The notes beneath the pieces are model-generated. The model did not search any database and was not told the DNA's origin. It saw only the letters and a list, made by a program, of their open reading frames with translations. This document shows, piece after piece, positions 2 to 21,519 of a DNA stretch of 21,526 nt. The position numbers and the translations under genes were made by a program. Position 1 is the stretch's first letter. The number at the start of each line of letters is the position of its first letter. This DNA is from a virus. Location: positions 1 through 21,526 of the IMG/VR virus record IMGVR_UViG_3300038960_000033, one strand, 5' to 3'.

Positions 2-991
2 GGTAGTATAGATTTACTTATGGGTGGTTCGCCATGTACGGGGTTTTCTTTTGCAGGGAAACAATTAAATTTTGATGACCCTCAGAGTAAATTGTTCTTT
101 CACTTTGTAGAGATTTTATCTTTAGTCAGACCTAAGTATGTGCTACTTGAAAATGTACGTATGAAGAAAGAATATCAAGATACCATATCTTATCACATGG
201 GTTTTGAGCCACAAGCATTAAACTCTAAGTGGTTGAGTGGTCAGAACAGGTACAGACTATATTGGTGGGGTAAACTGCAATCTGATGGTACATACAAACA
301 GATACCCATACCACGTATGGTAGACAAAGGTATTGTCATGCAAGATATCTTAGAAGATGGATATGCTACAAACGAGATGACTAGCCAAGATGGCAAATCA
401 CATTGTCTTACTGCAAGATACAATGGTGCAGTATGGTGGAATAGTATAGAGCGTAAGCAACGTACTATGGTACTCAAGGATAATCCTACCATGTCGAAGG
501 ATGGGTTGATACGTGTCGGTACTGCTGACCTCAAAGGTCATGACTCTATCAAGCGAGTGTATGCACAGGAAGGCAAAGCACCTACCCTCACTACCATGCA
601 AGGTGGACACAGAGAACCAAAGGTTGCCATTGGTCGTATCGTTAATCGTAGATTAGATGAGCATGGCACTAGGAAAGATGACCAACTTGACTTGCCTTTT
701 ACTAGGCAACTAGAAGTCCGAGATGATGGTAAGTCTAACTGTCTCACTACTGTGCAGAAAGATAACGTGGTAGTATCAAAAGATATGTGGCGAAAGCTGA
801 CACCCCTAGAGTGTGAGCGATTGCAGACATTACCTGACAACTATACCAATCATGTGTCCAACTCACAGAGATACAAGATGATTGGCAATGGGTGGACAGT
901 AGATGTGATTGCACATATACTCAAGACTATGGATGTTGAAAAACAATATTTACTAACTGACCCTATATGGGATGAAAGGTGGACAAGATGA
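2..991 (+). CDS. DNA (cytosine-C5) methyltransferase, 5' end outside window
   Basis: Transfers a methyl group from S-adenosylmethionine to carbon 5 of cytosine in DNA. The reading frame is open from base 2 and reads GSIDLLMGGSPCTGFS, so the first ATG at 20 is internal; motif I and the SAM-binding start lie upstream of the window. Visible motifs in order: IV (PCTGFSFAG, nucleophile Cys codon 35-37), VI (ENV, Glu codon 149-151), VIII (QNRYR, 242-256), then a target-recognition region, and near the C-terminus LTPLECERLQTLPDNY (IX) and MIGNGWTVDVIA (X, GN codons 884-889). The variable region holds three similar segments (SHCLTARYNG, APTLTTMQGG, SNCLTTVQKD), as is common in phage enzymes of this family. 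A role in shielding phage DNA from host restriction is inference. The family call is firm; the specificity cannot be read. Confidence 0.93.
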   Translation, partial: GSIDLLMGGSPCTGFSFAGKQLNFDDPQSKLFFHFVEILSLVRPKYVLLENVRMKKEYQDTISYHMGFEPQALNSKWLSGQNRYRLYWWGKLQSDGTYKQIPIPRMVDKGIVMQDILEDGYATNEMTSQDGKSHCLTARYNGAVWWNSIERKQRTMVLKDNPTMSKDGLIRVGTADLKGHDSIKRVYAQEGKAPTLTTMQGGHREPKVAIGRIVNRRLDEHGTRKDDQLDLPFTRQLEVRDDGKSNCLTTVQKDNVVVSKDMWRKLTPLECERLQTLPDNYTNHVSNSQRYKMIGNGWTVDVIAHILKTMDVEKQYLLTDPIWDERWTR

Positions 992-2647: not shown

Positions 2648-2771
2648 AATAACAGACTTTTTTAATGTGGACTATCACAAGAAATATGGGGAAGGTACGA
2701 AGTTCGACCTTGACTATGGCAAGTTACTAATCATAGGACTATGTATTTACATAGCAATAAAGGTATCTTAG
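2637..2771 (+). CDS. Tiny single-span membrane protein (44 aa)
   Basis: An unlisted small reading frame starting MWHRITDFFNVDYHKKYG and ending in a hydrophobic segment (LLIIGLCIYIAI). It has one of the best ribosome sites in the region, AAAGGAG at 2624-2630, six bases before the ATG at 2637. It overlaps the previous gene by 11 bases, and its TAG stop (2769-2771) shares a base with the likely GTG start of the integrase, so it would couple integrase translation. The function is unknown. Confidence 0.55.
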   Translation: MWHRITDFFNVDYHKKYGEGTKFDLDYGKLLIIGLCIYIAIKVS

Positions 2772-3664
2772 TGAACATAAGTGACCTAACAAATAAATAC
2801 TATTTGTCCAACGATTTCAATAGGTTAGCTGATAAAACTAAACATGATTATCAATATTGTGTGACTGTTTTATTGGACACAAAAGTTGATGGCAAAAGTA
2901 TGGCAGAAATATGTCTTACCAAAATGTCAGGTGCGATAGCACGTAGAGCATACGAAGTATGGCTTGGGCGTGGCGTGTACTTGGCGAATGCAGTTACATC
3001 AGTAGCACGTAAGATATATTCCTTTGGAATGGAGATGGGGTATGCCGAGAGCAACCCTTTCTCTACTTTCAAACGTAAATCTGCTCATGCTAGGACAACT
3101 GTGTGGACAAAAGAACAAGTTAGGAAATTTCTTAACCATTGTTACGAAGATTTTAAGCACAGAAACTTAGGATTGATAGTACAAATGGCATACGAATGGT
3201 GTCAAAGAGTGGGAGATATGCGAATTTTACAGTTCTCTAGCATAGATTTTGACAAAGGTGTGTTAAATTTGCAACAGTCAAAGAGAAGAAGTGTAGTACA
3301 CCTACCAATTTCTGTTGACTTATTAGAAATGCTTAAAGAACAGGCAAAAGATTACGACTTTCAGCCTTATGTTGCACCCTATCCTACACCAATGAGGGGT
3401 GTTTACAGTCCATATGCCATACAAAGGCTATCAAAAGTGGCTAGAAGAGTCATAAAAGAGTCAGGATTACCTGATGATTTACGAATATCTGACCTACGTA
3501 GGACAGGAACTACCGAAATGGTAGAAGCAGGAGTGCCTATGGGTCAGATTATGTCCGTTACAGGACACGCTAACCCACAGTCGGTTAAACCTTACATGAA
3601 AAATACGTATGCTAGTGCAGAAAATGCATTGACATTACGTGATAATTACATTAAGAGTATATAA
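2771..3664 (+). CDS. Tyrosine recombinase / integrase
   Basis: Site-specific recombinase that would integrate or excise the phage genome at an att site. With the GTG at 2771 as start (AAAGG at 2759-2763, stop-start overlap with the previous small gene) it has 297 residues; an in-frame ATG at 2741 lacks a ribosome site. An N-terminal SAM-like core-binding domain (about 1-105) precedes the catalytic domain. Catalytic positions: Arg146 (CQRVGDM), Lys171 (QQSKRR), Arg243 in SDLRRTG, His266 (TGHANP) and nucleophile Tyr275 (KPYMKN). The first residue of the HxxR box is Ser240 instead of His. No attP core could be recognised beside the gene, and there is no room for one outside coding sequence. Confidence 0.93.
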   Translation: MNISDLTNKYYLSNDFNRLADKTKHDYQYCVTVLLDTKVDGKSMAEICLTKMSGAIARRAYEVWLGRGVYLANAVTSVARKIYSFGMEMGYAESNPFSTFKRKSAHARTTVWTKEQVRKFLNHCYEDFKHRNLGLIVQMAYEWCQRVGDMRILQFSSIDFDKGVLNLQQSKRRSVVHLPISVDLLEMLKEQAKDYDFQPYVAPYPTPMRGVYSPYAIQRLSKVARRVIKESGLPDDLRISDLRRTGTTEMVEAGVPMGQIMSVTGHANPQSVKPYMKNTYASAENALTLRDNYIKSI

Positions 3665-10912: not shown

Positions 10913-11953
10913 ATGCAAAACTATTTACCAACTGATTATCAAAATTTTATAGCTCTTTCTAGATATGCAAGATGGAAAGACGATGAGCAAAGACGAGAGA
11001 CTTGGATAGAAACTGTGGATAGATATATAGGTTACATGGATAACCATCTAAAAACTAATTATAACTACACGATTACTAAAGCTCTCAAAGAGAAACTAAA
11101 TGAATCTATAGTATCTCTTGGCACTATGCCAAGCATGAGAGCATTAATGACTGCAGGTATAGCGTTAGATAGGTGTCATGTAGCAGGGTATAATTGTAGC
11201 TACATACCTGTAGATAGTCCACGTAGCTTTGATGAATGTATGTATATACTTATGTGTGGCACAGGTGTAGGTTTCTCTGTAGAAAGAGAGAATGTAGATA
11301 AACTACCTGTAGTAAACGAACACTTTGAGCAGTCATCTACTGTTATAAAGGTTGCTGATAGTAGACCCGGATGGTCAAGAGCATTACGTGAGTTAATATC
11401 TTTATTATATGCAGGACAGATACCTACATGGGATGTATCCGAGGTAAGACCTGCAGGTGCTAGACTAAAAACTTTTGGTGGTAGAGCATCAGGACCTGCT
11501 CCTCTCATAGACTTGTTTAAGTTTTGTATACAGAAGTTTGAGGGTGCAAAAGGTAGAAGACTATTTCCTATAGAGTGTCACGATATCATGTGTAAGATAG
11601 GAGAGGTTGTAGTTGTTGGTGGTGTTAGACGTTCTGCTCTTATCTCTTTGTCTAACTTAGGTGATGACCAAATGCGTCATGCCAAGTCAGGACAGTGGTG
11701 GGAGAATGAAGGGCAAAGAGCATTGGCTAATAACTCTGTAGCGTTTAAAGGTAAGCCTGAGATGGGTACATTCATGAGAGAGTGGACATCATTATATGAA
11801 TCTAAATCAGGAGAGCGTGGTATCTTTAATAGAAAAGCCGCAAAAGTAAAAGCATCGGAGAATGGTAGACGTGAGACTGAGCATGAGTTTGGATGTAATC
11901 CATGCAGTTCTGTAATCTTACAGAGGTTGTTGCACGAGAAACAGATGATATAG
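10913..11953 (+). CDS. nrdJ: Class II ribonucleotide reductase, N-terminal part (frame-disrupted)
   Basis: Adenosylcobalamin-dependent RNR reduces ribonucleotides to deoxyribonucleotides for phage DNA synthesis. This frame carries the first half: SLGTMPSMRALMTAG, HVAGYNCSY (Cys95, one of the redox pair), MCGTGVGFSVER, VRPAGARLKTFGGRASGP, VVGGVRRSALISL, and the radical-site GCNPC (Cys331). After NPC the frame should continue S-E-I-I-L, but it runs into unrelated residues (SSVILQRLLHEKQMI) and stops. Sequence equivalent to NPC and QFCNLTEVV is almost abutted in different frames. GAGGAG at 10901-10906 precedes the ATG. As it stands the product would be inactive; if 25 missing bases are restored the gene is one frame of 642 codons. 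Confidence 0.93.
   Translation: MQNYLPTDYQNFIALSRYARWKDDEQRRETWIETVDRYIGYMDNHLKTNYNYTITKALKEKLNESIVSLGTMPSMRALMTAGIALDRCHVAGYNCSYIPVDSPRSFDECMYILMCGTGVGFSVERENVDKLPVVNEHFEQSSTVIKVADSRPGWSRALRELISLLYAGQIPTWDVSEVRPAGARLKTFGGRASGPAPLIDLFKFCIQKFEGAKGRRLFPIECHDIMCKIGEVVVVGGVRRSALISLSNLGDDQMRHAKSGQWWENEGQRALANNSVAFKGKPEMGTFMREWTSLYESKSGERGIFNRKAAKVKASENGRRETEHEFGCNPCSSVILQRLLHEKQMI
11897..11913 (+). other. nrdJ: Frame disruption at the RNR active site
   Basis: The radical Cys codon is at 11903 and the partner Cys codon (FCNL) at 11911, eight bases apart and out of frame. In class II enzymes these Cys are 11 residues (33 bases) apart, so about 25 bases are missing, including the conserved Glu two residues after the radical Cys. 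CAGT at the junction could belong to either side, consistent with a microhomology deletion or a collapse in assembly. Confidence 0.8.
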
Positions 11954-12816
11954 TATCCTTGAAAGATAAAGTTCGCATGGCTACTATATTAGGCACATTT
12001 CAATCTACTCTTACAGACTTTAAGTATCTACGTAAAGTATGGAAATCTAATACAGAGGAAGAGAGGTTGCTAGGTGTATCTTTGACAGGTATATTAGACT
12101 GTCCTGTTCTATCTCCTGATAATAGTAACTTATCTTTTAACTTACAACTACTAAAAGAGGTTGCAGTAGAAACTAACAAGAAGATTGCTAAAGACTTAGG
12201 CATACCACAGTCAACTGCTATAACATGTATCAAACCTAGTGGCACAGTTAGCCAATTAGTTGACAGTGCATCAGGAATACATGCAAGACATAATCCTTTC
12301 TATGTTAGAACTGTGCGTGGAGATAATAAAGACCCACTCACACAGTTTATGAAAGAGAGTGGTATCCCTGCAGAACCTGATGTCATGAAGCCTGACAGCA
12401 CAACTGTGTTTAGCTTTCCTATGAAGTCACCTACAGGTGCTATCACTAGAACTGAGATGACTGCTGTACAACAGTTAGAATATTGGCTCATGTTCCAAAG
12501 AAGTTGGTGTGAGCATAAACCATCTGTAACTATATCTGTAAAAGAAGATGAGTGGATGGATGTAGGAGCTTGGGTATACAGAAACTTTGATGAGGTATCA
12601 GGTATATCCTTCTTACCTTTCAGTGACCATACATATGCACAAGCACCTTATCAAGATATAAATGAGGAAGAGTACAAAGAGTTACATAGTAAGATGCCTA
12701 CCTCTATTGATTGGTCTAAGTTAGCAGACTTCGAGAAAGAGGACACGACAAGTGGCTCTAAAGAACTAGCTTGTACTGCTGATGCCTGTGAAATGGTTGA
12801 CATACAGGCTAGTTAA
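11902..12816 (+). CDS. nrdJ: Class II ribonucleotide reductase, C-terminal part (frame-disrupted)
   Basis: The second half of the same enzyme begins in the -1 frame at the loop QFCNLTEVVARE (partner redox Cys). It continues with LLGVSLTGILD, the phosphate-binding IKPSGTVSQLVD, ASGIHARHNPFYVRTVR, QRSWCEHKPSVTISVKEDEW, SGISFLPF and the C-terminal swinging-arm cysteines ACTADACEMV (CxxxxC). The ATG at 11902 is simply the first in frame and has no ribosome site, so this is not an independent gene start. All functional marks downstream are well preserved, which means the disruption is recent or artefactual. The monomeric B12-dependent type (NrdJ) is supported by the C-terminal Cys pair and by the absence of a small-subunit gene nearby. 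Confidence 0.9.
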   Translation: MQFCNLTEVVARETDDIVSLKDKVRMATILGTFQSTLTDFKYLRKVWKSNTEEERLLGVSLTGILDCPVLSPDNSNLSFNLQLLKEVAVETNKKIAKDLGIPQSTAITCIKPSGTVSQLVDSASGIHARHNPFYVRTVRGDNKDPLTQFMKESGIPAEPDVMKPDSTTVFSFPMKSPTGAITRTEMTAVQQLEYWLMFQRSWCEHKPSVTISVKEDEWMDVGAWVYRNFDEVSGISFLPFSDHTYAQAPYQDINEEEYKELHSKMPTSIDWSKLADFEKEDTTSGSKELACTADACEMVDIQAS

Positions 12817-13884: not shown

Positions 13885-14197
13885 GAGTTTGATAACTGCA
13901 AATGAATACCAAGAGAAGTGTAAGACTACAGCTATCTATCCTAAGAAAGATGCCATAGCTTACCTATCTCTTGGACTTGTGAGTGAAGCAGGAGAGGTAG
14001 CAGGGAAAGTAAAGAAACAAATACGTGATGGCACTACATCAAACGTAGCGTCTGAGATAGGTGATGTTCTTTGGTATTGTGCTATGTTAGCGAATGAGTT
14101 AGGTGCTAATCTAGGTAAGATTATGGAAGATAATTTGTATAAACTTAATGATAGAAAGACACGAGGAACGTTACAGGGGTCAGGAGATAGTCGTTAA
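13835..14197 (+). CDS. mazG: MazG-like nucleotide pyrophosphohydrolase
   Basis: Hydrolyses nucleoside triphosphates or alarmone-type nucleotides to monophosphates and pyrophosphate. It is common in marine phages, where it is thought to tune host nucleotide or (p)ppGpp pools. The metal-binding helices are clear: LGLVSEAGEVAGKVKKQ (ExxE) and SEIGDVLWYCAMLANELG (ExxD), followed by the typical KLNDRKTRGTLQGSGDSR end. The 120 residues match single-domain MazG enzymes. The start is GTG 13835, with GGAG at 13821-13824; an in-frame ATG at 13868 is possible. It overlaps the previous gene by 50 bases and ends the plus-strand module. Confidence 0.92.
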   Translation: MTKLEEEAKKFMQLHNKSLITANEYQEKCKTTAIYPKKDAIAYLSLGLVSEAGEVAGKVKKQIRDGTTSNVASEIGDVLWYCAMLANELGANLGKIMEDNLYKLNDRKTRGTLQGSGDSR

Positions 14198-17100
14198 AAT
14201 GCACTACCTGATAAAGCATTACCCATAATTTTACCTACTAACAAGTGGTTTCTATCAGGGTCTGCTTCTTGCATTTCCATAACTGTCATACCATATTTTT
14301 CCATATAATATTCGTCTGCTAGTTTTCTTTTATCTGCTCCTAATCTACCCCATTGTGCTCTATCAAAAGGGGTAAAGGCTCTACCCTCTAGCCTAGCCTC
14401 TGCCTGTGCCTCTGCTTTTCCTAACTCTTTAGATATATTTCTATACAACTTTAAATTGTTTAAAAGCATGGCTTTCTTTTTAGTATCAGAGGCTTGTTTA
14501 TATCTGTCAGACTGAACAATCTTTTTAACCTCTTTGTCCACATACTTACCCATATATCTTTTAACAAAAGCATCTGCAGATTTATCTCCTGTTGATGGAA
14601 CTACTTGATAAGTTTCTAGTCCAAATTTAACTAACTCTTTTTCTACAGGGGTTCGTTGCATTTCTTTTCTAACACCTGTTAATTGAGTTCCTACAGGACT
14701 TTGTCTATATATTTTACCCTCTCTTGTAGCACTCTCTAACTCAGGATAATATTCTTTTACAAAAGGTAAATTACGTAGTATAGAATTAGAGAATGCACTC
14801 ATGCCTCTTTCAGTAGCACCTGAACCATCTATCTGATTAAAGTCTCTAAGCACTGCTTCTTCTTCATCAAAAGCAGCCACTACATCTCTTACAATTCTAC
14901 CCGGAGTAGCTGCACCACCAATTAACTCACCTATATATCCACCAACATACTCTGCTAATTTTTCACCTGTGATATCAGTGAGTCCTGTTGGACTTCTGAG
15001 GTTCTTATAGAAAGACTCAATCATATATGAACTTGCACCTGTTCTAAACTGAGAGCCTGTTATACCCTCTAGTAAATCCTTAGTATCTATCTTTTCTAAT
15101 TCATTATTATCCCACTTTACTATAAAGTCTGCCACTATTAAGTAAGGAGCTAATGGAAAGAAAGGTCTCATATCTGCAGTTCTACCATCATCCGTTTTAG
15201 ATTCATACCACTTTACGTCTTGGTTATTAGACCTATGATAGATTGCTGCTTGAAGAGCGGCATAACCAACTAAACCTTTAGAGAATTGTTCTCTAGCTAA
15301 GTTAAATTGTCTCTCACCTGCCTTAAAATCACCTTTTAAATATTTACCTAAACCACCTGCACTATTTAAAGTAGCACCCACAAAACTTACAGGACTATAT
15401 TGAAATTGAAACTGCATTGCATTTGCCATAAATCTAGCAAAAGGAAATGCACCTGTACCTGCAGGCACACCTATAAGTCCGGGCAAAGGTCCTAGTGCCT
15501 CATTAAACTTAATAAAGTTATAGGCTATACCATCTCCCACATATTTTTTAGAATTTTGTTTAGGCATACGAGAGAAAGTAAAAGACAAAGCATCTTCTAC
15601 TGAGTCACCTACTAATTTTGTGGGTAGAACTTTACCTTGTCTGTGTACATCTGCAAGACTTGTACCCATACGTCTTAACTTTTTATCCACTGATGCAGTA
15701 AATACACCTCTTCTAAAAAATCCATCTTGCATGATGTTTAAATGGTTTAGTGCCATAGTAAATCTAGATAAACTTTCAGTACCTGTTACCTCTCCTGTTG
15801 TTCTGTTAAGGGTTCTTAATAACTGAGGATTATATTTTAGTAAAGATTCTGCTAACTCTCCTGATGTATTATTATCCATAGTAAATGCTATGAGACCAAA
15901 AGCATCTCTACCTATATCTCTTAGTCCTCTTTGGAAGTTACCTGCAGTAATATCTTCTACTGCTTTACCTGTCGCTAAAGAATTTATCGCTCTACCTGCA
16001 TGATATAGACTTGACTCCATTAAGTTGTAGGCAGACTCAAAGCCTAATCTAGTCACACCTGTAGCCACGTTACGAACAGTTGTAGATAATTGTGTAACCA
16101 TGAGTGCTCTACGCTCTCTATCCATTCTTTGCATAAATGAAACTAATTTACTAGTCTCAGTATCACCCATGTTACCAAACTTTTCGTCAAATAATTTCTT
16201 GAGAAGAGGGTCTGACTCCTTATAACCTTTAAATAGTTTTCCTAATGGACTAGCTGCCTGTAACAACTGTCCTGCCTCACTAAATGATGTATAAGTTATT
16301 TCAGAAAACTGTTTCTGAGTCAATCCTGCTCTAGCTATAGCACCATCTAGTAAGTCTAAGTCAATACCTTCAAACTCTTTAGTGTTAAATCTCTGTAGTA
16401 TTTCTCCTATAGCTTCTGATGCTTTACCATCACCCTCTTGATACTTACTTAAAAATTCATCATACTTACCTGTAGTGTCTTTTAACATATCCTCTACAGT
16501 TTCTGTGGCTACTTTAGATACTCTTTGGATTATATCCACTTTAACTTTTTTGTCTAGTATATCTAAATTAGATAAATTTAAATCAGGGTCTAGATTATCT
16601 AGTATTCTTCTACCCTCTGTAGGGTCAAATGAGATATCATCTGCATTCATGGTAAGTTGTCTACCTATATTTTCATCAGGATTAGCATTACCACTAAATG
16701 CTTTAGAGGCTAACCTGTCATTTTTACCTTCTTTTATTAACTGTTTTCTAGCTTTATTTATAGCTCCTTTACCTAAACTCTTATAACCAACACCACCTAT
16801 TGTACCAACTATAGCTGAACTAAGTCCTGCTGAAAGTAATATATCACTAACTGTAGCCTCTTCACCCATCTCTGCTTCAGCTTCTACCTTACTCAATCCA
16901 TATTCGTCATACGCACCTCTGAATCCCTCTACTGCTGTTTCAGCTATTAGAGGCTTTTTGATAGCCTGAAATCCTATTCTACTTGACTGTGATATAGCAC
17001 CTCTTTTACCTAGTTGTAGTATAGATTGTTTAGCAGCTTGGGTTGCTGCTACAGTTGCTATCTTTGCAGTTCCTAATCCTATTAAATTTATAGGGTCTGC

Positions 17101-17688
17101 TATCAATGCCTTTCCATAATCTAATATACCATCAAGAGTTCCTGTTCCACCTTCTTCATAAAAACTAGGTAGTCTTTGGATATCTCGGTATAAAGCACCA
17201 AACTCTGCTTTATCCTCTTCTGATGAAGAACGAATCCAATCGACTTGACCCATTAAATCTAATGTATTAGCGTTTATTTGTCGATAATGTGTTACAAATC
17301 TTTTTACATAATCTTTGTCACTTTCACCTTCCATCTGCATACCTGACTCACCGAATCTTTTCTTTCCGTATGAGCGTAAGGTAGACAAAAAGTTTTCATC
17401 TTTAGAAAACTCATCTAAAGTTTTTATTCTCTCTTCAAAAGTTTCATCTGCATATGTGGGGTCTAGCTGAAAGGAATCTTCAGCTTTAGGTTTGTCTTCA
17501 TCTTCTTCTGCAAAGTAGTCTATCTGCTTTGTTGCTACAGCTACTTCTTCTTTTTCTTCAGGCTTCTCCTCTTCCTCTGCAAAGTAATCTACAGAGGTGG
17601 TATTAGATACTTCTATAGCTTCTTCAGTAGCATCTTTTTTCTCTTCGTCATCCTCTGCGAAGTAGTCTACAGTATTCTTTAAAGCCAT
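14194..17688 (-). CDS. Large internal virion protein (T7 gp16-like position)
   Basis: A protein of 1164 residues, the largest product in the window, probably a virion protein that enters the host with the DNA. The acidic N-terminus carries three copies of DYFAE (residues 8-12, 34-38, 57-61). A region near 275-300 is rich in small residues and could insert in a membrane (LLSAGLSSAIVGTIGGVGY). A long helical part follows, and the C-terminal third has FARFMANAMQFQFQYSPVS and basic helices. No lysozyme or transglycosylase motif is evident. The position after a 505-aa helical protein and small virion genes parallels T7 gp14-gp15-gp16. It starts directly after the 505-aa gene (TAA then ATG, AAAGG upstream) and its stop overlaps that of mazG. 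The ejection role is inferred from size and order. Confidence 0.85.
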   Translation of the reverse strand: MALKNTVDYFAEDDEEKKDATEEAIEVSNTTSVDYFAEEEEKPEEKEEVAVATKQIDYFAEEDEDKPKAEDSFQLDPTYADETFEERIKTLDEFSKDENFLSTLRSYGKKRFGESGMQMEGESDKDYVKRFVTHYRQINANTLDLMGQVDWIRSSSEEDKAEFGALYRDIQRLPSFYEEGGTGTLDGILDYGKALIADPINLIGLGTAKIATVAATQAAKQSILQLGKRGAISQSSRIGFQAIKKPLIAETAVEGFRGAYDEYGLSKVEAEAEMGEEATVSDILLSAGLSSAIVGTIGGVGYKSLGKGAINKARKQLIKEGKNDRLASKAFSGNANPDENIGRQLTMNADDISFDPTEGRRILDNLDPDLNLSNLDILDKKVKVDIIQRVSKVATETVEDMLKDTTGKYDEFLSKYQEGDGKASEAIGEILQRFNTKEFEGIDLDLLDGAIARAGLTQKQFSEITYTSFSEAGQLLQAASPLGKLFKGYKESDPLLKKLFDEKFGNMGDTETSKLVSFMQRMDRERRALMVTQLSTTVRNVATGVTRLGFESAYNLMESSLYHAGRAINSLATGKAVEDITAGNFQRGLRDIGRDAFGLIAFTMDNNTSGELAESLLKYNPQLLRTLNRTTGEVTGTESLSRFTMALNHLNIMQDGFFRRGVFTASVDKKLRRMGTSLADVHRQGKVLPTKLVGDSVEDALSFTFSRMPKQNSKKYVGDGIAYNFIKFNEALGPLPGLIGVPAGTGAFPFARFMANAMQFQFQYSPVSFVGATLNSAGGLGKYLKGDFKAGERQFNLAREQFSKGLVGYAALQAAIYHRSNNQDVKWYESKTDDGRTADMRPFFPLAPYLIVADFIVKWDNNELEKIDTKDLLEGITGSQFRTGASSYMIESFYKNLRSPTGLTDITGEKLAEYVGGYIGELIGGAATPGRIVRDVVAAFDEEEAVLRDFNQIDGSGATERGMSAFSNSILRNLPFVKEYYPELESATREGKIYRQSPVGTQLTGVRKEMQRTPVEKELVKFGLETYQVVPSTGDKSADAFVKRYMGKYVDKEVKKIVQSDRYKQASDTKKKAMLLNNLKLYRNISKELGKAEAQAEARLEGRAFTPFDRAQWGRLGADKRKLADEYYMEKYGMTVMEMQEADPDRNHLLVGKIMGNALSGSAF
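17506..17667 (-). repeat. Three DYFAE short linear motifs
   Basis: Within the N-terminus of the 1164-aa protein the peptide DYFAE, followed by an acidic run, occurs at 17653-17667, 17575-17589 and 17506-17520. The spacings are unequal (26 and 23 residues) and the linkers are acidic and of low complexity. The codons differ between copies (GAC/GAT, GCG/GCA, TTC/TTT), so the peptide rather than the DNA appears to be conserved. Confidence 0.85.
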
Positions 17689-19206
17689 TTATCTTTTACC
17701 TTTTCGTGCCTCGGCTCTTATCTGTGCTTGACTCTTTTTATCTTCAGGTACAGCATCTCCAAATCTCTTTTTTCTCAACTCTGCTAGTCTTTTCTTCTCT
17801 GCATCGGCTGCTTTCTTTTCTTCTGTATATTTATTCCAAACAATTTGTGCTAAACCATCCATTCTTTCTTCATAAGCCTCTTGAGTTTCGTCTGCTTTCT
17901 TTGGATAGGTTTGCATTAACATATCAGAAAGTTGCATAGGATTAGTTATGGTAGTTTTTGTTCCTTGATTTAACTCTAATAAGTTTCTAGCCACGTTTTC
18001 ATTTACTTCAGGATTATCTTTAACAAGTTTTTCTACCTTTTCTCTCTTAGTTATTTTCTTTGGCTCTTGTATTTCTTTTTCACCTTCACCTTCACCTACA
18101 CCAAATTCTTCTTTTAAAACTTCTTCTACTAATCCTTGTGCATTATTCGTTGCTATCCAGTTTAAAGCACCCTCAGATTTAACAGTGCCATCACTATCAA
18201 TTAATCCTTTTACATAATTTTTCTTAGACTCTCTAAGTTTTTGATTATAGTATTTAGTTGCTTCATCTCCTGATAAAAGTCCTTCAGGTGTGGTTACTTT
18301 TAAAATACCACCTGATGTATTATAACCTACCTCTGTTTTTAGATTAGTTACTACACTATTAAATCCTGTGTTAACTTTAGAGAAAGTTAAGTCTTTAGTA
18401 GTTGTATCATCTTTAGCGTTTGCAGCTATGTTAGCCGCTTGTACTGTTGCAGATTTTTTATTCACATCAGCTAAGATACTTATAACAGTATCCTTCTTTT
18501 GATTAAGAGCATCTAACTTATCTTTATAGTCAGGTGCAGTTTTATCTAATTGAGTTATTTGAGTAGCTATAACCCCAAGTTGAGATTCTAAATCTTTAGG
18601 AGCTTTCATTAGTCTATCATATCTTATAGAGCCTTTACCAAAAGATTCTTTTATGTCAGATTCACTAGCATTATCTGCAGGTAATAATCCTGCTTGTACA
18701 TATTGTGATTTTGCTTGTTCGTAAGTTTGCTTTGGGTCAATTCCAAATAACTGCATACCTTTTGTTGTTACACCTGTTGCAAATTCAGGTGTGGATATTT
18801 GTCTTAGTTTTACTAATCCTTTAGCAGCTTCAGCTACACCTTCAAAACCTTGCTCTTCATTTGCATGAGCATAATCATATGCCTCATTCATGTTACCCCC
18901 TAATTTTTTATGGGTTGATAATTCTTTATACATTGTATTATAGTGGTCATCTCCACCTGCAACTATGGCTCTAGCTTTATTAAAGGCAAATTTATCATCT
19001 TTATCAAATAACTGTGCTATGGCTTTTATTTGTTGCTCTACTTTTTCTTTATCATTTTGAAATTTTTTTCTATTCTCTGCGGCTTCAGCTACTTGTCTAT
19101 CAAGTATAGTTCTAGTACGGAGCTTTACTTCTTTTTCTTGCTCATCAATATCTTCAACTATCTGTGAAGCTGCCCCACCTAAAAATGCACCAAAGTTAAA
19201 TCCCAT
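17689..19206 (-). CDS. Internal virion protein, helical (T7 gp15-like position)
   Basis: A protein of 505 residues. The glycine-rich start MGFNFGAFLGGAASQ is typical of phage internal or ejection proteins. It is followed by charged helices (EQEKEVKLRTRTILDRQVAE), then a long helical and low-complexity body, and a strongly charged tail (EEKKAADAEKKRLAELRKKR) ending KGKR. No enzyme motif is visible. Its ATG overlaps the previous stop (TAATG) with AAGGAG upstream. Size and order between small virion proteins and the 1164-aa protein suggest an inner-core or DNA-ejection component; this is inference, and the sequence alone does not name a family. Confidence 0.82.
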   Translation of the reverse strand: MGFNFGAFLGGAASQIVEDIDEQEKEVKLRTRTILDRQVAEAAENRKKFQNDKEKVEQQIKAIAQLFDKDDKFAFNKARAIVAGGDDHYNTMYKELSTHKKLGGNMNEAYDYAHANEEQGFEGVAEAAKGLVKLRQISTPEFATGVTTKGMQLFGIDPKQTYEQAKSQYVQAGLLPADNASESDIKESFGKGSIRYDRLMKAPKDLESQLGVIATQITQLDKTAPDYKDKLDALNQKKDTVISILADVNKKSATVQAANIAANAKDDTTTKDLTFSKVNTGFNSVVTNLKTEVGYNTSGGILKVTTPEGLLSGDEATKYYNQKLRESKKNYVKGLIDSDGTVKSEGALNWIATNNAQGLVEEVLKEEFGVGEGEGEKEIQEPKKITKREKVEKLVKDNPEVNENVARNLLELNQGTKTTITNPMQLSDMLMQTYPKKADETQEAYEERMDGLAQIVWNKYTEEKKAADAEKKRLAELRKKRFGDAVPEDKKSQAQIRAEARKGKR

Positions 19207-19706
19207 TATGCTCTCCTTGCCATAAGACCCATAGGTTCTTCTTGTATCTCTTCTTCCATCATATCTTCTTCTTCTTCAGGCATATCTTCTACTGTCATAC
19301 CTTTAATCTTACTTAATGCAGAGTCCAATACAGCATCAGATGCTCTATCTGATTCTTCAGGCTCATCACCCATTACATATTTAGTATCTGTTTTCTCTGC
19401 TAATGTTTTCATTATCTCTATAAGTATAGGTAAAACTAATACACCTACATCAATACTATGCACACCTTGTAACACTGCACCTAATTGCATTGAGTTTGCT
19501 ATTGTGCTTAGTGGTATACCTGATTCTATAATAGACAATAGTTCCTGTACTAATTCAGGATTGTCAAATCTATCTAGATACCAATCCATAGATTCTTCTA
19601 CAGTGCTAAACTGTGGTGGATTTTGCCAAGGTCTTGCTCTTAATTCATGTGTAAGAGATTGCCCCGGAATAGGTCTACTGAATGATACTTGTTCAACATC
19701 ACGCAT
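19206..19706 (-). CDS. Conserved virion-module protein with PIPGQSLT motif
   Basis: A protein of 166 residues from the ATG at 19706, which has AAGGA eight bases upstream; a longer frame from 19745 adds 13 residues but lacks a ribosome site. The N-terminus FSRPIPGQSLTHELRARPW followed by NPPQFSTVEES resembles, from memory, a protein found beside structural genes of many marine and cyanophages, of unknown function. The middle is helical (LQGVHSIDVGVLVLPILIEI, a hydrophobic stretch too polar at its edges to be a certain membrane span). The tail is extremely acidic with methionines (EDMPEEEEDMMEEEI). It overlaps both neighbours, so it is co-translated with the virion genes. Confidence 0.82.
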   Translation of the reverse strand: MRDVEQVSFSRPIPGQSLTHELRARPWQNPPQFSTVEESMDWYLDRFDNPELVQELLSIIESGIPLSTIANSMQLGAVLQGVHSIDVGVLVLPILIEIMKTLAEKTDTKYVMGDEPEESDRASDAVLDSALSKIKGMTVEDMPEEEEDMMEEEIQEEPMGLMARRA

Positions 19707-19890
19707 TATTATAATCCTTAATATCTTGTATATATCTTGCCACACGCATAGTTACATCTACGTTAGGCTTATACTTTTTAGCTTTAGTAGACATAGTTTT
19801 AGATAGTAGACCACTTTTAGGCTCTTGCATAGGCTCTACTTGCATCTTAGATAATTTTCTATATATATTTAAAGAAGGGTTTGTTTCCAT
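19699..19890 (-). CDS. Small basic hypothetical protein in virion module
   Basis: A protein of 63 residues, lysine- and methionine-rich (RKLSKMQVEPMQEPKSG, KAKKYKPNVDV), ending in a helix (TMRVARYIQDIKDYNNA). Its ATG overlaps the preceding stop (TAATG), and its own end overlaps the next gene by eight bases. GGAGG lies about 12 bases before the start, farther than usual. The family is unknown. The tight fit between virion genes supports it being real. Confidence 0.68.
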   Translation of the reverse strand: METNPSLNIYRKLSKMQVEPMQEPKSGLLSKTMSTKAKKYKPNVDVTMRVARYIQDIKDYNNA

Positions 19891-20660
19891 TATCCGAATA
19901 ATCCTCCACCACCAAACATTGAACCTGTTACAAACTTACCAATCAATCCACCAAAAGCAGAAGAAGAGGCATAATCATTTTTCATGTCTTGTATGTTAGC
20001 GGCACTGTCAGCTTGTAGCTGTGCCTTTGCAAGTTCAATAACACGACTTCTTTCATTCTCTGCAGATGTCCATGCCCACTCCATAGTATCACCATAATAC
20101 TGCCACAAATTATTATAGGCTTGATTACTTAGTCCTAATATATTCTGAGCATTCAATTCATTAGCTCTGTTTATAGCTGCAGTATCTGCAGTTGCTAACT
20201 GTCTTCTCCAATTAGCGTTTGCCTGTGCAATAACTAATTGATTCTGTGCATTAAATTGGTCACGTTGATTGTTAATCTCTGCATTAAATCTTTCTATAGT
20301 ATTAGCCTGACCTGCATTAAACTGTGACTGTGCATTCATTTGTGTTGCATTAAACTGATTAGCTTGTTGTGCTAAATTAGCAAAGAATTGGTCTACTTGA
20401 TTCTGAGAAGTAGCGTTAAACTGCCTTGATGCATTCTCTGCTGCTTGGTCAGTAAACAAAGATTGTATCTGTTGTTGTGCTCCAAACATTTCTGCTTGTT
20501 GTCTGTTGGATAGGTTAGCCATATCCATTTGCAAGAATGACTGTGCGTTCTGTACAGCAGCTTGTTGTCTAGCATTTAAATTTGCAGTGTCTAAACCTGA
20601 TAAAGCAGAAGCGTTTGCCATTACTAATGCCTGTCTATTAGACAAGTTATTTAGATTCAT
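19890..20660 (-). CDS. Hendecad-repeat virion protein, C-terminal part (frame-disrupted)
   Basis: The 256 residues continue the preceding repeat protein. Residues 5-180 are sixteen consecutive 11-residue units, most starting with Asn (NLSNRQALVMA, NASALSGLDTA, NLNARQQAAVQ and so on; later NATQMNAQSQF, NAGQANTIERF, NAEINNQRDQF). A tail with WQYYGDTMEWAW follows, and the protein ends in a glycine/phenylalanine-rich segment (FGGLIGKFVTGSMFGGGGLFG). The ATG at 20660 is internal: the frame is open upstream to about 20712 and reads IETLQQVALENSRAAQT before it, still in repeat phase. It is therefore not an independent gene. Long right-handed coiled-coil rods are expected from hendecads. A structural or ejection role in the virion is inferred from position. 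Confidence 0.85.
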   Translation of the reverse strand: MNLNNLSNRQALVMANASALSGLDTANLNARQQAAVQNAQSFLQMDMANLSNRQQAEMFGAQQQIQSLFTDQAAENASRQFNATSQNQVDQFFANLAQQANQFNATQMNAQSQFNAGQANTIERFNAEINNQRDQFNAQNQLVIAQANANWRRQLATADTAAINRANELNAQNILGLSNQAYNNLWQYYGDTMEWAWTSAENERSRVIELAKAQLQADSAANIQDMKNDYASSSAFGGLIGKFVTGSMFGGGGLFG

Positions 20661-20871
20661 AGTCTGAGCAGCACGAGAGTTCTCTAAAGCTACCTGTTGT
20701 AAAGTTTCTATTAGCTATGTCACTTATCTTTGCGGCATTTTGTACATTAGCTTGGAACGCTTGGTCAAACTCTAGTCCTATAAAGTTAGCTCTTTGTTGA
20801 GCTGCTAACATAGCACGTTGTTGTCTATTAGATAAGTTCTGTGTTTCAAACTGTGTTTGTACCTGTGCATC
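20121..20871 (-). repeat. About 23 tandem 11-residue (hendecad) repeats
   Basis: From Asp at 20871 to Gln at 20121 the protein divides into consecutive 11-residue units, usually beginning with Asn (sometimes Asp, Ala, Gly). NLSNRQ- or NLNARQ-type units occur in alternate positions in the stretch NLSNRQALVMA, NASALSGLDTA, NLNARQQAAVQ, NAQSFLQMDMA, NLSNRQQAEMF, giving a 22-residue super-repeat. Later units carry FNA at each boundary. Only the unit at the frame disruption is short. Confidence 0.88.
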
Positions 20872-21519
20872 TGCTCGTGCAATAGGTAACGCTGATTCCA
20901 TAGCAGCCTGTACAAGTGCCTGTCCTGCAATGCTAGAAGCACCTAAACCTCTTTGTTGCATAACTGCATTAACACCTCTGATAGCACCTGCCGCCCATGA
21001 AGGTGGATTAGTAGCATCAAAGTTTGCAGTTAATGTTGCTAGTTGTCCTGCTACAGTTGCTTTCTCAGAAGGTGTAGCAGTGGCAGCCTCTATTTGTTCT
21101 GTAAATGTTTTTGCCTTTTCTGCATCAGCAGTTGTAGATATCAACTCACCTGCTTGTATCTGCCTTTGAATAGGGTTTGTCATTTGAGTTGCAACACCTT
21201 GAGCCGCAGTTAAGTCTGCCACAGAGGTTGTTGCTTGTTGTTGTGCTTGTACTTGTGACCTTTGTCTTTCTTGGTCAGTTACTTGAGCACCTTGAACTGT
21301 TTGTAATGCTTCTCTTATCTGTGGAGTTACAGCCTGTGCTTGTAATTGTTGAGCATCAGCTTTGCTCTGTTGCTGTGTAGTTGCTGTTCCTGCTTGTGCC
21401 GCAGGTAATGCAACTTGCCCTTGAACACCTATATCTGTAGGAATAAATTGTCCTGCTGTTGGAGTGACACCTACTGTTTGTATCTGTGCTCCCTGTGGTA
21501 AAGCAGGAGCAGTTGCCAT
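20647..21519 (-). CDS. Hendecad-repeat virion protein, N-terminal part (frame-disrupted)
   Basis: A protein of 290 residues, extremely rich in Ala, Gln and Thr. Residues 1-155 are low-complexity and probably extended or helical (QQQSKADAQQLQAQ). Next comes a better-ordered segment with PPSWAAGAIRGVNAVMQQRGLGASSIAGQ, and from residue 217 the 11-residue repeats begin (DAQVQTQFETQ, NLSNRQQRAML). The repeats run to NAAKISDIANR and NFT; then the frame changes register and ends in atypical residues (TGSFRELSCCSDYESK), including two Cys in an otherwise Cys-free protein. That is the sign of an out-of-frame tail. With 8 bases restored, this frame and the following one make a single 545-codon gene. The window edge is seven bases beyond the ATG, so the true start may lie upstream. 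Confidence 0.85.
   Translation of the reverse strand: MATAPALPQGAQIQTVGVTPTAGQFIPTDIGVQGQVALPAAQAGTATTQQQSKADAQQLQAQAVTPQIREALQTVQGAQVTDQERQRSQVQAQQQATTSVADLTAAQGVATQMTNPIQRQIQAGELISTTADAEKAKTFTEQIEAATATPSEKATVAGQLATLTANFDATNPPSWAAGAIRGVNAVMQQRGLGASSIAGQALVQAAMESALPIARADAQVQTQFETQNLSNRQQRAMLAAQQRANFIGLEFDQAFQANVQNAAKISDIANRNFTTGSFRELSCCSDYESK
20679..20706 (-). other. Frame disruption in the hendecad protein, 8 bases short
   Basis: The Asn codon opening one repeat is at 20706 and the Asn codon opening the next is at 20681, 25 bases away instead of the 33 that every other unit uses. Frame N-terminal to the site ends in an odd tail; frame C-terminal to it reads QQVALE and continues the repeats. 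Exactly 8 bases are therefore missing, probably encoding part of an NFTAEQQ-like stretch. Confidence 0.8.

What the first reader, a model, noticed from the sequence alone, without database searches (positions are those of the whole stretch)
20121..20871. Long hendecad-repeat rod protein in the virion module
About 23 uninterrupted 11-residue units with Asn at position 1, alternating 22-residue super-repeats in part of the array, and FNA at several unit boundaries. Hendecads form right-handed or nearly straight coiled coils. The unusual Gln/Asn/Ala composition, near absence of Lys and Cys, and glycine-rich C-terminus (MFGGGGLFG) suggest an extended structural or ejection component different from T7 gp14. 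An Asn-led 11-residue register of this length is striking and apparently without an assigned function.
Basis: partly seen in the sequence, partly recalled or inferred. Interest (0 to 1): 0.65.

Follow-up and report, generated by a model that had tools for sequence, protein, structure and literature searches.

The report
Hendecad helix protein of phage ejection genes
A marine virus of the HMO-2011 group carries a very long helical protein built from a strictly kept 11-residue unit, next to genes for the machinery that pushes viral DNA into a bacterium, and it probably helps build the channel through the cell wall.

Summary
In detail: about 23 in-register 11-residue units on the minus strand. 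Corrections: the frame is broken in this record near 20,700 by a short deletion that none of the 88 related loci checked shows. The contig also ends inside the gene; intact copies run from about 460 to over 1,200 residues.

(1) The unit is an evolutionary quantum. Between two fixed flanking motifs the array has eight different lengths, spanning 10 to 38 units, and all leave the same remainder modulo 11. (2) At the hendecad helix angle there is no single hydrophobic stripe, while Gln/Ser/Thr gather on one face. This argues against a simple one-core rod and resembles the wall helices of the phiX174 H DNA tube. (3) The gene opens a conserved cassette with a ~170-residue partner present in every genome checked. 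In the window's group the cassette's last gene is homologous to "internal virion protein D" of T7-like pelagiphages.

Best reading: an ejection (pilot) protein whose long helix lines or builds a trans-envelope DNA conduit. Cassette membership is well supported; tube formation is inferred. No family, PDB or fold match exists. It is a new variant of a known kind.

The parts
20100..20850 (-). Hendecad array, about 23 units of 11 residues; broken across two frames in this record
20695..20710 (-). Frame-breaking short deletion relative to all intact relatives (record defect or null allele, not programmed frameshifting)
20647..21519 (-). Upstream part of the gene (5' ORF); the contig end cuts off the N-terminus
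20863..21006 (-). Conserved helical segment before the array (PP-WA-GA ... RGLGASS-AGQA ... ALPIA-DA), used as upstream anchor
19890..20660 (-). Downstream part of the gene (3' ORF, 256 aa)
19893..19967 (-). Glycine-rich, moderately hydrophobic C-terminal segment (SAFGGLIGKFVTGSMFGGGGLFG), present in varied sequence in most relatives; candidate membrane-active end
19699..19890 (-). 63-aa ORF between the hendecad gene and its partner; detected in closer relatives only
19206..19706 (-). ~167-aa partner protein (PIPGQSLT...GLMARR family), found beside the hendecad gene in every genome checked
17689..19206 (-). 505-aa mostly helical protein, third main gene of the cassette (position of gp15 in T7; no sequence or fold match to it)
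14194..17688 (-). 1164-aa protein whose N-terminal part is homologous to internal virion protein D of T7-like pelagiphages

Best explanation
The gene encodes an internal virion (ejection) protein of HMO-2011-type short-tailed phages. Several copies leave the capsid with the rest of the cassette. Their long helices then pack side by side as the wall or lining of a tube that carries the DNA across the cell envelope. The Gln/Ser/Thr face would point to the lumen, as in the phiX174 H tube, and the Gly-rich hydrophobic C-terminus would insert into a membrane. Shown: hendecad register, length change in whole units, helical prediction, absence of a one-face hydrophobic stripe, Gln/Ser/Thr segregated to one face, conserved cassette, homology of its last gene to internal virion protein D. 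Inferred: presence in the virion, oligomerisation, tube, lumen side, membrane insertion.
For: Synteny: the hendecad gene is followed by the ~170-aa partner in every genome searched with profiles, and in the window's group by ~500-aa and ~1,160-aa genes. The last gene matches internal virion protein D of HTVC019P, HTVC109P, CRP-810 and others (tblastn 8e-4 to 3e-6; hhalign 96%, 3.6e-9; profile E 1e-20 to 8e-24). Wall hydrolase genes sit next to the hendecad gene in CRP-603 (PF07486, 1.4e-23) and CRP-13 (SLT/phage lysozyme), as expected of envelope-crossing cassettes (PMC8954989, PMC11440229). Helix. Array lengths of 116, 149, 160, 171, 182, 226, 314 and 424 residues between anchors are all 6 modulo 11. 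Gln/Ser/Thr one-face share 0.81, P<0.001 against permuted register columns, and 0.49-0.85 in six divergent families. phiX174 H hendecads show the same layout and its tube lumen is amide-lined (PMC7354561). Array length ~253 residues, about 38 nm as a helix, is enough to cross a Gram-negative envelope (inference).
Against: No proteomics found that places it in virions. No homology to T7 gp14 or phiX174 H. The two-seam hydrophobic signal is only consistent (28% of variance, P 0.27), the 2.75-residue line is stronger, and the charged face opposite Gln/Ser/Thr is weak and absent in some relatives. The C-terminal segment is less hydrophobic than a typical transmembrane helix. The 505-aa neighbour shows no similarity to gp15. 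The 1,160-aa gene is not detected in the CHOED and HTVC103P groups. The model is a monomer with mean pLDDT 54.
Confidence: 0.52

Rival explanations
1. An internal-core or portal-associated packing protein: long helices stack around the portal barrel or line the capsid interior, organising DNA or the core, and are ejected or left behind without forming a conduit.
For: Same cassette and helix evidence. DEV gp72 forms a helical ring around the portal before ejection (PMC10925440). No membrane segment is strong.
Against: Length change in exact hendecads over a four-fold range and a Gln/Ser/Thr-lined face are not specifically predicted.
Confidence: 0.23
2. A tail-associated rod, whisker or collar fibre made of a parallel coiled coil.
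For: Annotated tail-fibre and tail-collar genes lie upstream of the homologous gene in HMO-2011; long helix.
Against: Almost no one-face hydrophobic moment; no receptor-binding-like terminal domain recognised; glycine-rich hydrophobic end; constant pairing with the partner gene at the ejection end of the module.
Confidence: 0.15
3. A scaffold or assembly factor, or a mainly disordered low-complexity Q/N-rich protein, with the 11-residue periodicity a by-product of repeat expansion.
For: Gln/Asn/Ala-rich, mean pLDDT 54 with a disordered N-terminal half.
Against: Residues 290-615 have no indel in 47 relatives and many invariant positions; register survives between distant families; helix predicted at pLDDT 70-85.
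Confidence: 0.1

Closest known systems
Puniceispirillum phage HMO-2011 phage1322_25 (ADW08438) and its homologues in CRP-1, phiM6, CHOED, MQM1, HTVC103P, Slicky01
   Same: Same gene: 70% identity to HMO-2011 over the downstream ORF, same cassette order
   Different: Annotated only as hypothetical proteins; this record is frame-broken and lacks the N-terminus
phiX174 H DNA pilot protein (decameric helical DNA tube, PDB 4JPP)
   Same: Hendecads, Gln-rich face, charged face opposite in the hendecad part
   Different: No sequence homology; ssDNA phage; 3-4 hendecads then heptads against 10-38 hendecads here
T7 ejectosome gp14-gp15-gp16 and DEV gp73-gp72-gp71
   Same: Cassette of helical internal proteins ending in a very large one; the last gene here is homologous to pelagiphage internal virion protein D, named after T7 gp16
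   Different: The hendecad protein and the ~170-aa partner have no counterpart in T7 by sequence; T7 gp14 is ~200 aa against 460-1,260 here

Membership tests
HMO-2011 phage1322_25 family (unnamed) | Homologous hendecad array and C-terminal W-RR...LW..Y.DTMEWAW region | tested here: met
   tblastn 70% identity, E 5e-79; alignment A2; profile hits in all 27 hendecad loci searched
HMO-2011 phage1322_25 family (unnamed) | Array length in whole hendecads between fixed anchors | tested here: met
   Eight lengths, all 6 mod 11; exceptions L123 (one residue) and mis-anchored L032/L033
Podovirus ejection (internal virion) protein cassette | Gene cluster holding an internal virion protein D / gp16-like gene | tested here: met
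   T7 gp16 itself gives no match
Podovirus ejection (internal virion) protein cassette | Protein present inside the virion and ejected into the host | not testable with these tools
   No proteomics found in searches
T7 gp14 (internal virion protein B) | Sequence homology to gp14 | tested here: not met
   hhalign probability 0.03%; pelagiphage gp14-position protein 0.04%
T7 gp14 (internal virion protein B) | About 200 aa, several predicted membrane helices | tested here: not met
   460-1,261 aa; best 19-residue hydropathy window mostly 1.0-1.5
phiX174 H pilot protein | Sequence homology | tested here: not met
   hhalign probability 0.9% over 20 columns outside the array
phiX174 H pilot protein | Helix with an amide-rich face forming an open oligomeric tube | tested here: inconclusive
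   Face segregation shown; oligomer and tube could not be modelled
Canonical hendecad coiled coil | One hydrophobic stripe at 11/3 periodicity | tested here: not met
   1.7% of hydropathy variance at 3.67 residues

The most novel reading that the evidence does not exclude
A dsDNA short-tailed phage lineage abundant in the ocean independently evolved a phiX174-H-like DNA tube: an amide-lined barrel of hendecad helices whose length is set by the number of 11-residue units (10 to 38, about 17 to 64 nm) and may be matched to the envelope of each host.
Probability: 0.25. Interest if true: 0.85.

Novelty: new variant of a known kind. Interest (0 to 1): 0.56.

Why it matters
HMO-2011-type phages are among the most abundant marine viral groups (PMC9038755), yet how their DNA crosses the host envelope is not described in the papers read here. 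The hendecad-partner pair marks a component with no counterpart in the T7 system. An array that changes length only in whole 11-residue units offers a natural series of rulers, so tube length against envelope thickness becomes testable. It would also be convergent with the phiX174 pilot protein.

Tried and rejected
Programmed frameshifting: rejected; every intact relative reads one frame and the record has a deletion there. Heptad coiled coil: no signal at 7 or 3.5. Family libraries Pfam, PHROGs, NCBIfam: nothing above cut-off. PDB by sequence and fold: nothing significant. Fold of the 505-aa neighbour against PDB and BFVD: only uncharacterised phage proteins, so a gp15 identity is unproven. 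Distant search with A3 failed for lack of conserved stretches. My first two-face test against plain shuffles overstated significance because any 11-periodic pattern fills all harmonics; the stricter register-permutation test keeps the Gln/Ser/Thr face and the near-lack of a one-face stripe but not the two seams on their own. The angle scan also puts the second-order maximum at 114.6 degrees in four of five arrays, an alias of the 2.75-residue line. Closely related homologues are not independent tests of these patterns.

Full report
What is there. The array lies on the minus strand at about 20,100-20,850. Two ORFs carry it: 20647-21519 and 19890-20660. In the downstream ORF the 11-residue register runs from residue 1 to about 190; self-identity at lags 11, 22 and 33 has z of 5.4, 6.8 and 5.0, lag 7 is negative. 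Lead Asn occurs in 12 of 17 units there and 66% of family cells.

State of the gene. All 88 related loci examined read the two parts in one frame, and the window alone does not; aligned DNA shows a short deletion near 20,700 in the window. The contig ends inside the gene. Intact relatives run from 460 to 1,261 residues. The vitamin B12-dependent ribonucleotide reductase gene of the same record is also split in two overlapping frames near 11,900-11,950, which favours record-level errors over biology.

Family and range. tblastn finds relatives in 27 phage records: HMO-2011, Roseobacter CRP phages, pelagiphages HTVC033P/103P/104P/115P, Rhizobium and Sinorhizobium phages, Vibrio CHOED, Aeromonas MQM1, Pseudoalteromonas Slicky01, and 569 stretches in IMG/VR. 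Bacterial-genome hits are few and look like phage contigs in MAGs or a single-cell genome. No Pfam, PHROGs, NCBIfam or PDB family fits.

Structure. AlphaFold2 on a 641-aa intact relative with 47 sequences gives a disordered N-terminal half and helices 293-342, 349-450 and 458-629, with pLDDT 70-85 over roughly 470-610. Foldseek finds nothing, as expected for a lone helix.

The hendecad as a quantum. In 47 relatives residues 290-615 have no indel. Between distant families the alignment gaps in the array are 44, 66, 88, 11, 22 and 33, or pairs that sum to 22. Independent of alignment, the distance from the PIAQ motif to the W-RR motif is 116, 149, 160, 171, 182, 226, 314 or 424 residues, always 6 modulo 11. 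By chance seven further lengths would agree with the first with probability about 11^-7 if independent (inference; shared ancestry makes the true figure larger). One contig (L123) is off by one; L032/L033 matched a wrong upstream motif; CRP-212 carries a variant anchor shifted by one.

Faces of the helix. At 98.18 degrees per residue hydrophobicity has no one-face moment (p 0.58), a two-face moment (p 0.002), Gln/Ser/Thr point to 245 degrees and charges to 74. A two-face hydropathy moment (p 0.01 or less) without a one-face one recurs in all fifteen homologues measured, and in none of 40 control windows from cassette, T7, HTVC019P and phiX174 proteins. The stricter null permutes the 11 register positions: one-face hydropathy share 0.017 (P 0.07), two-face share 0.28 (P 0.27), Gln/Ser/Thr one-face share 0.81 (P<0.001); the last holds at P 0.002-0.08 in six divergent families. 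So the Gln/Ser/Thr face is solid and a single hydrophobic stripe is nearly absent; the two seams are only consistent, and the strongest hydropathy line is 2.75 residues.

Comparison with a known DNA tube. phiX174 H residues 151-271 form a decameric helical tube starting with hendecads; 18 of 23 inward positions are Asn, Gln or Arg (PMC7354561). Its hendecads show Gln/Ser/Thr 163 degrees from charge. There is no homology; the likeness is of design.

Cassette. Downstream of the hendecad gene come a 63-aa ORF, a ~170-aa partner, a ~500-aa and a ~1,160-aa protein, in nearly all complete loci of the window's group. With profiles, the partner is found in every hendecad genome tested, while the two large genes vary. 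The 1,164-aa protein matches internal virion protein D of Autographiviridae pelagiphages and CRP-810. T7 and these T7-like loci show no hendecad or partner gene by profile. A cell-wall hydrolase follows the hendecad gene in CRP-603 and a lysozyme/transglycosylase-like gene in CRP-13. The order small-medium-very large matches the gp14-gp15-gp16 operons reviewed in PMC8954989, but homology to gp14 and gp15 is not found.

Mechanism. Most likely: packaged inside the capsid, ejected first or early, helices pack side by side into or along a tube with the Gln/Ser/Thr face to the DNA, and the glycine-rich C-terminus touches a membrane. Only cassette, predicted helix, register and faces are shown; the rest is inference.

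Noticed in passing
window 10913-12816: The B12-dependent ribonucleotide reductase is split into two overlapping ORFs (10913-11953 and 11902-12816); HMO-2011 has it as one ORF. A second frame break in this record.
   Followed up: partly
window 14194-17688 (protein N-terminus, near 17,500-17,688): The internal-virion-protein-D-like protein begins with three acidic repeats of a DYFAE motif.
   Followed up: no
L002:9700-9975 and L076:8800-8987: In HMO-2011 and L076/L077 the glycine-rich C-terminus of the hendecad protein is extended with a C-(W)-VA...YG...RW..FR.WL-like module ending in a basic tail; no Pfam match.
   Followed up: partly
L106:3245-4183 (CRP-603), L105:3252-4127 (CRP-13): A Hydrolase_2 cell wall hydrolase and an SLT/phage-lysozyme-like gene sit directly after the hendecad gene.
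   Followed up: partly
L102:1-1768 (HTVC033P): 2OG-Fe(II) oxygenases and a putative ferrochelatase lie beside the hendecad gene.
   Followed up: no
   Followed up: no
L098: Single-cell genome AG-899-M17 (Alphaproteobacteria) holds a relative of the cassette; a possible host link.
   Followed up: no
window 2-991, 2090-2647, 2741-3664: C-5 cytosine methyltransferase, pyrimidine-dimer glycosylase-like and tyrosine integrase genes in the replication half.
   Followed up: partly
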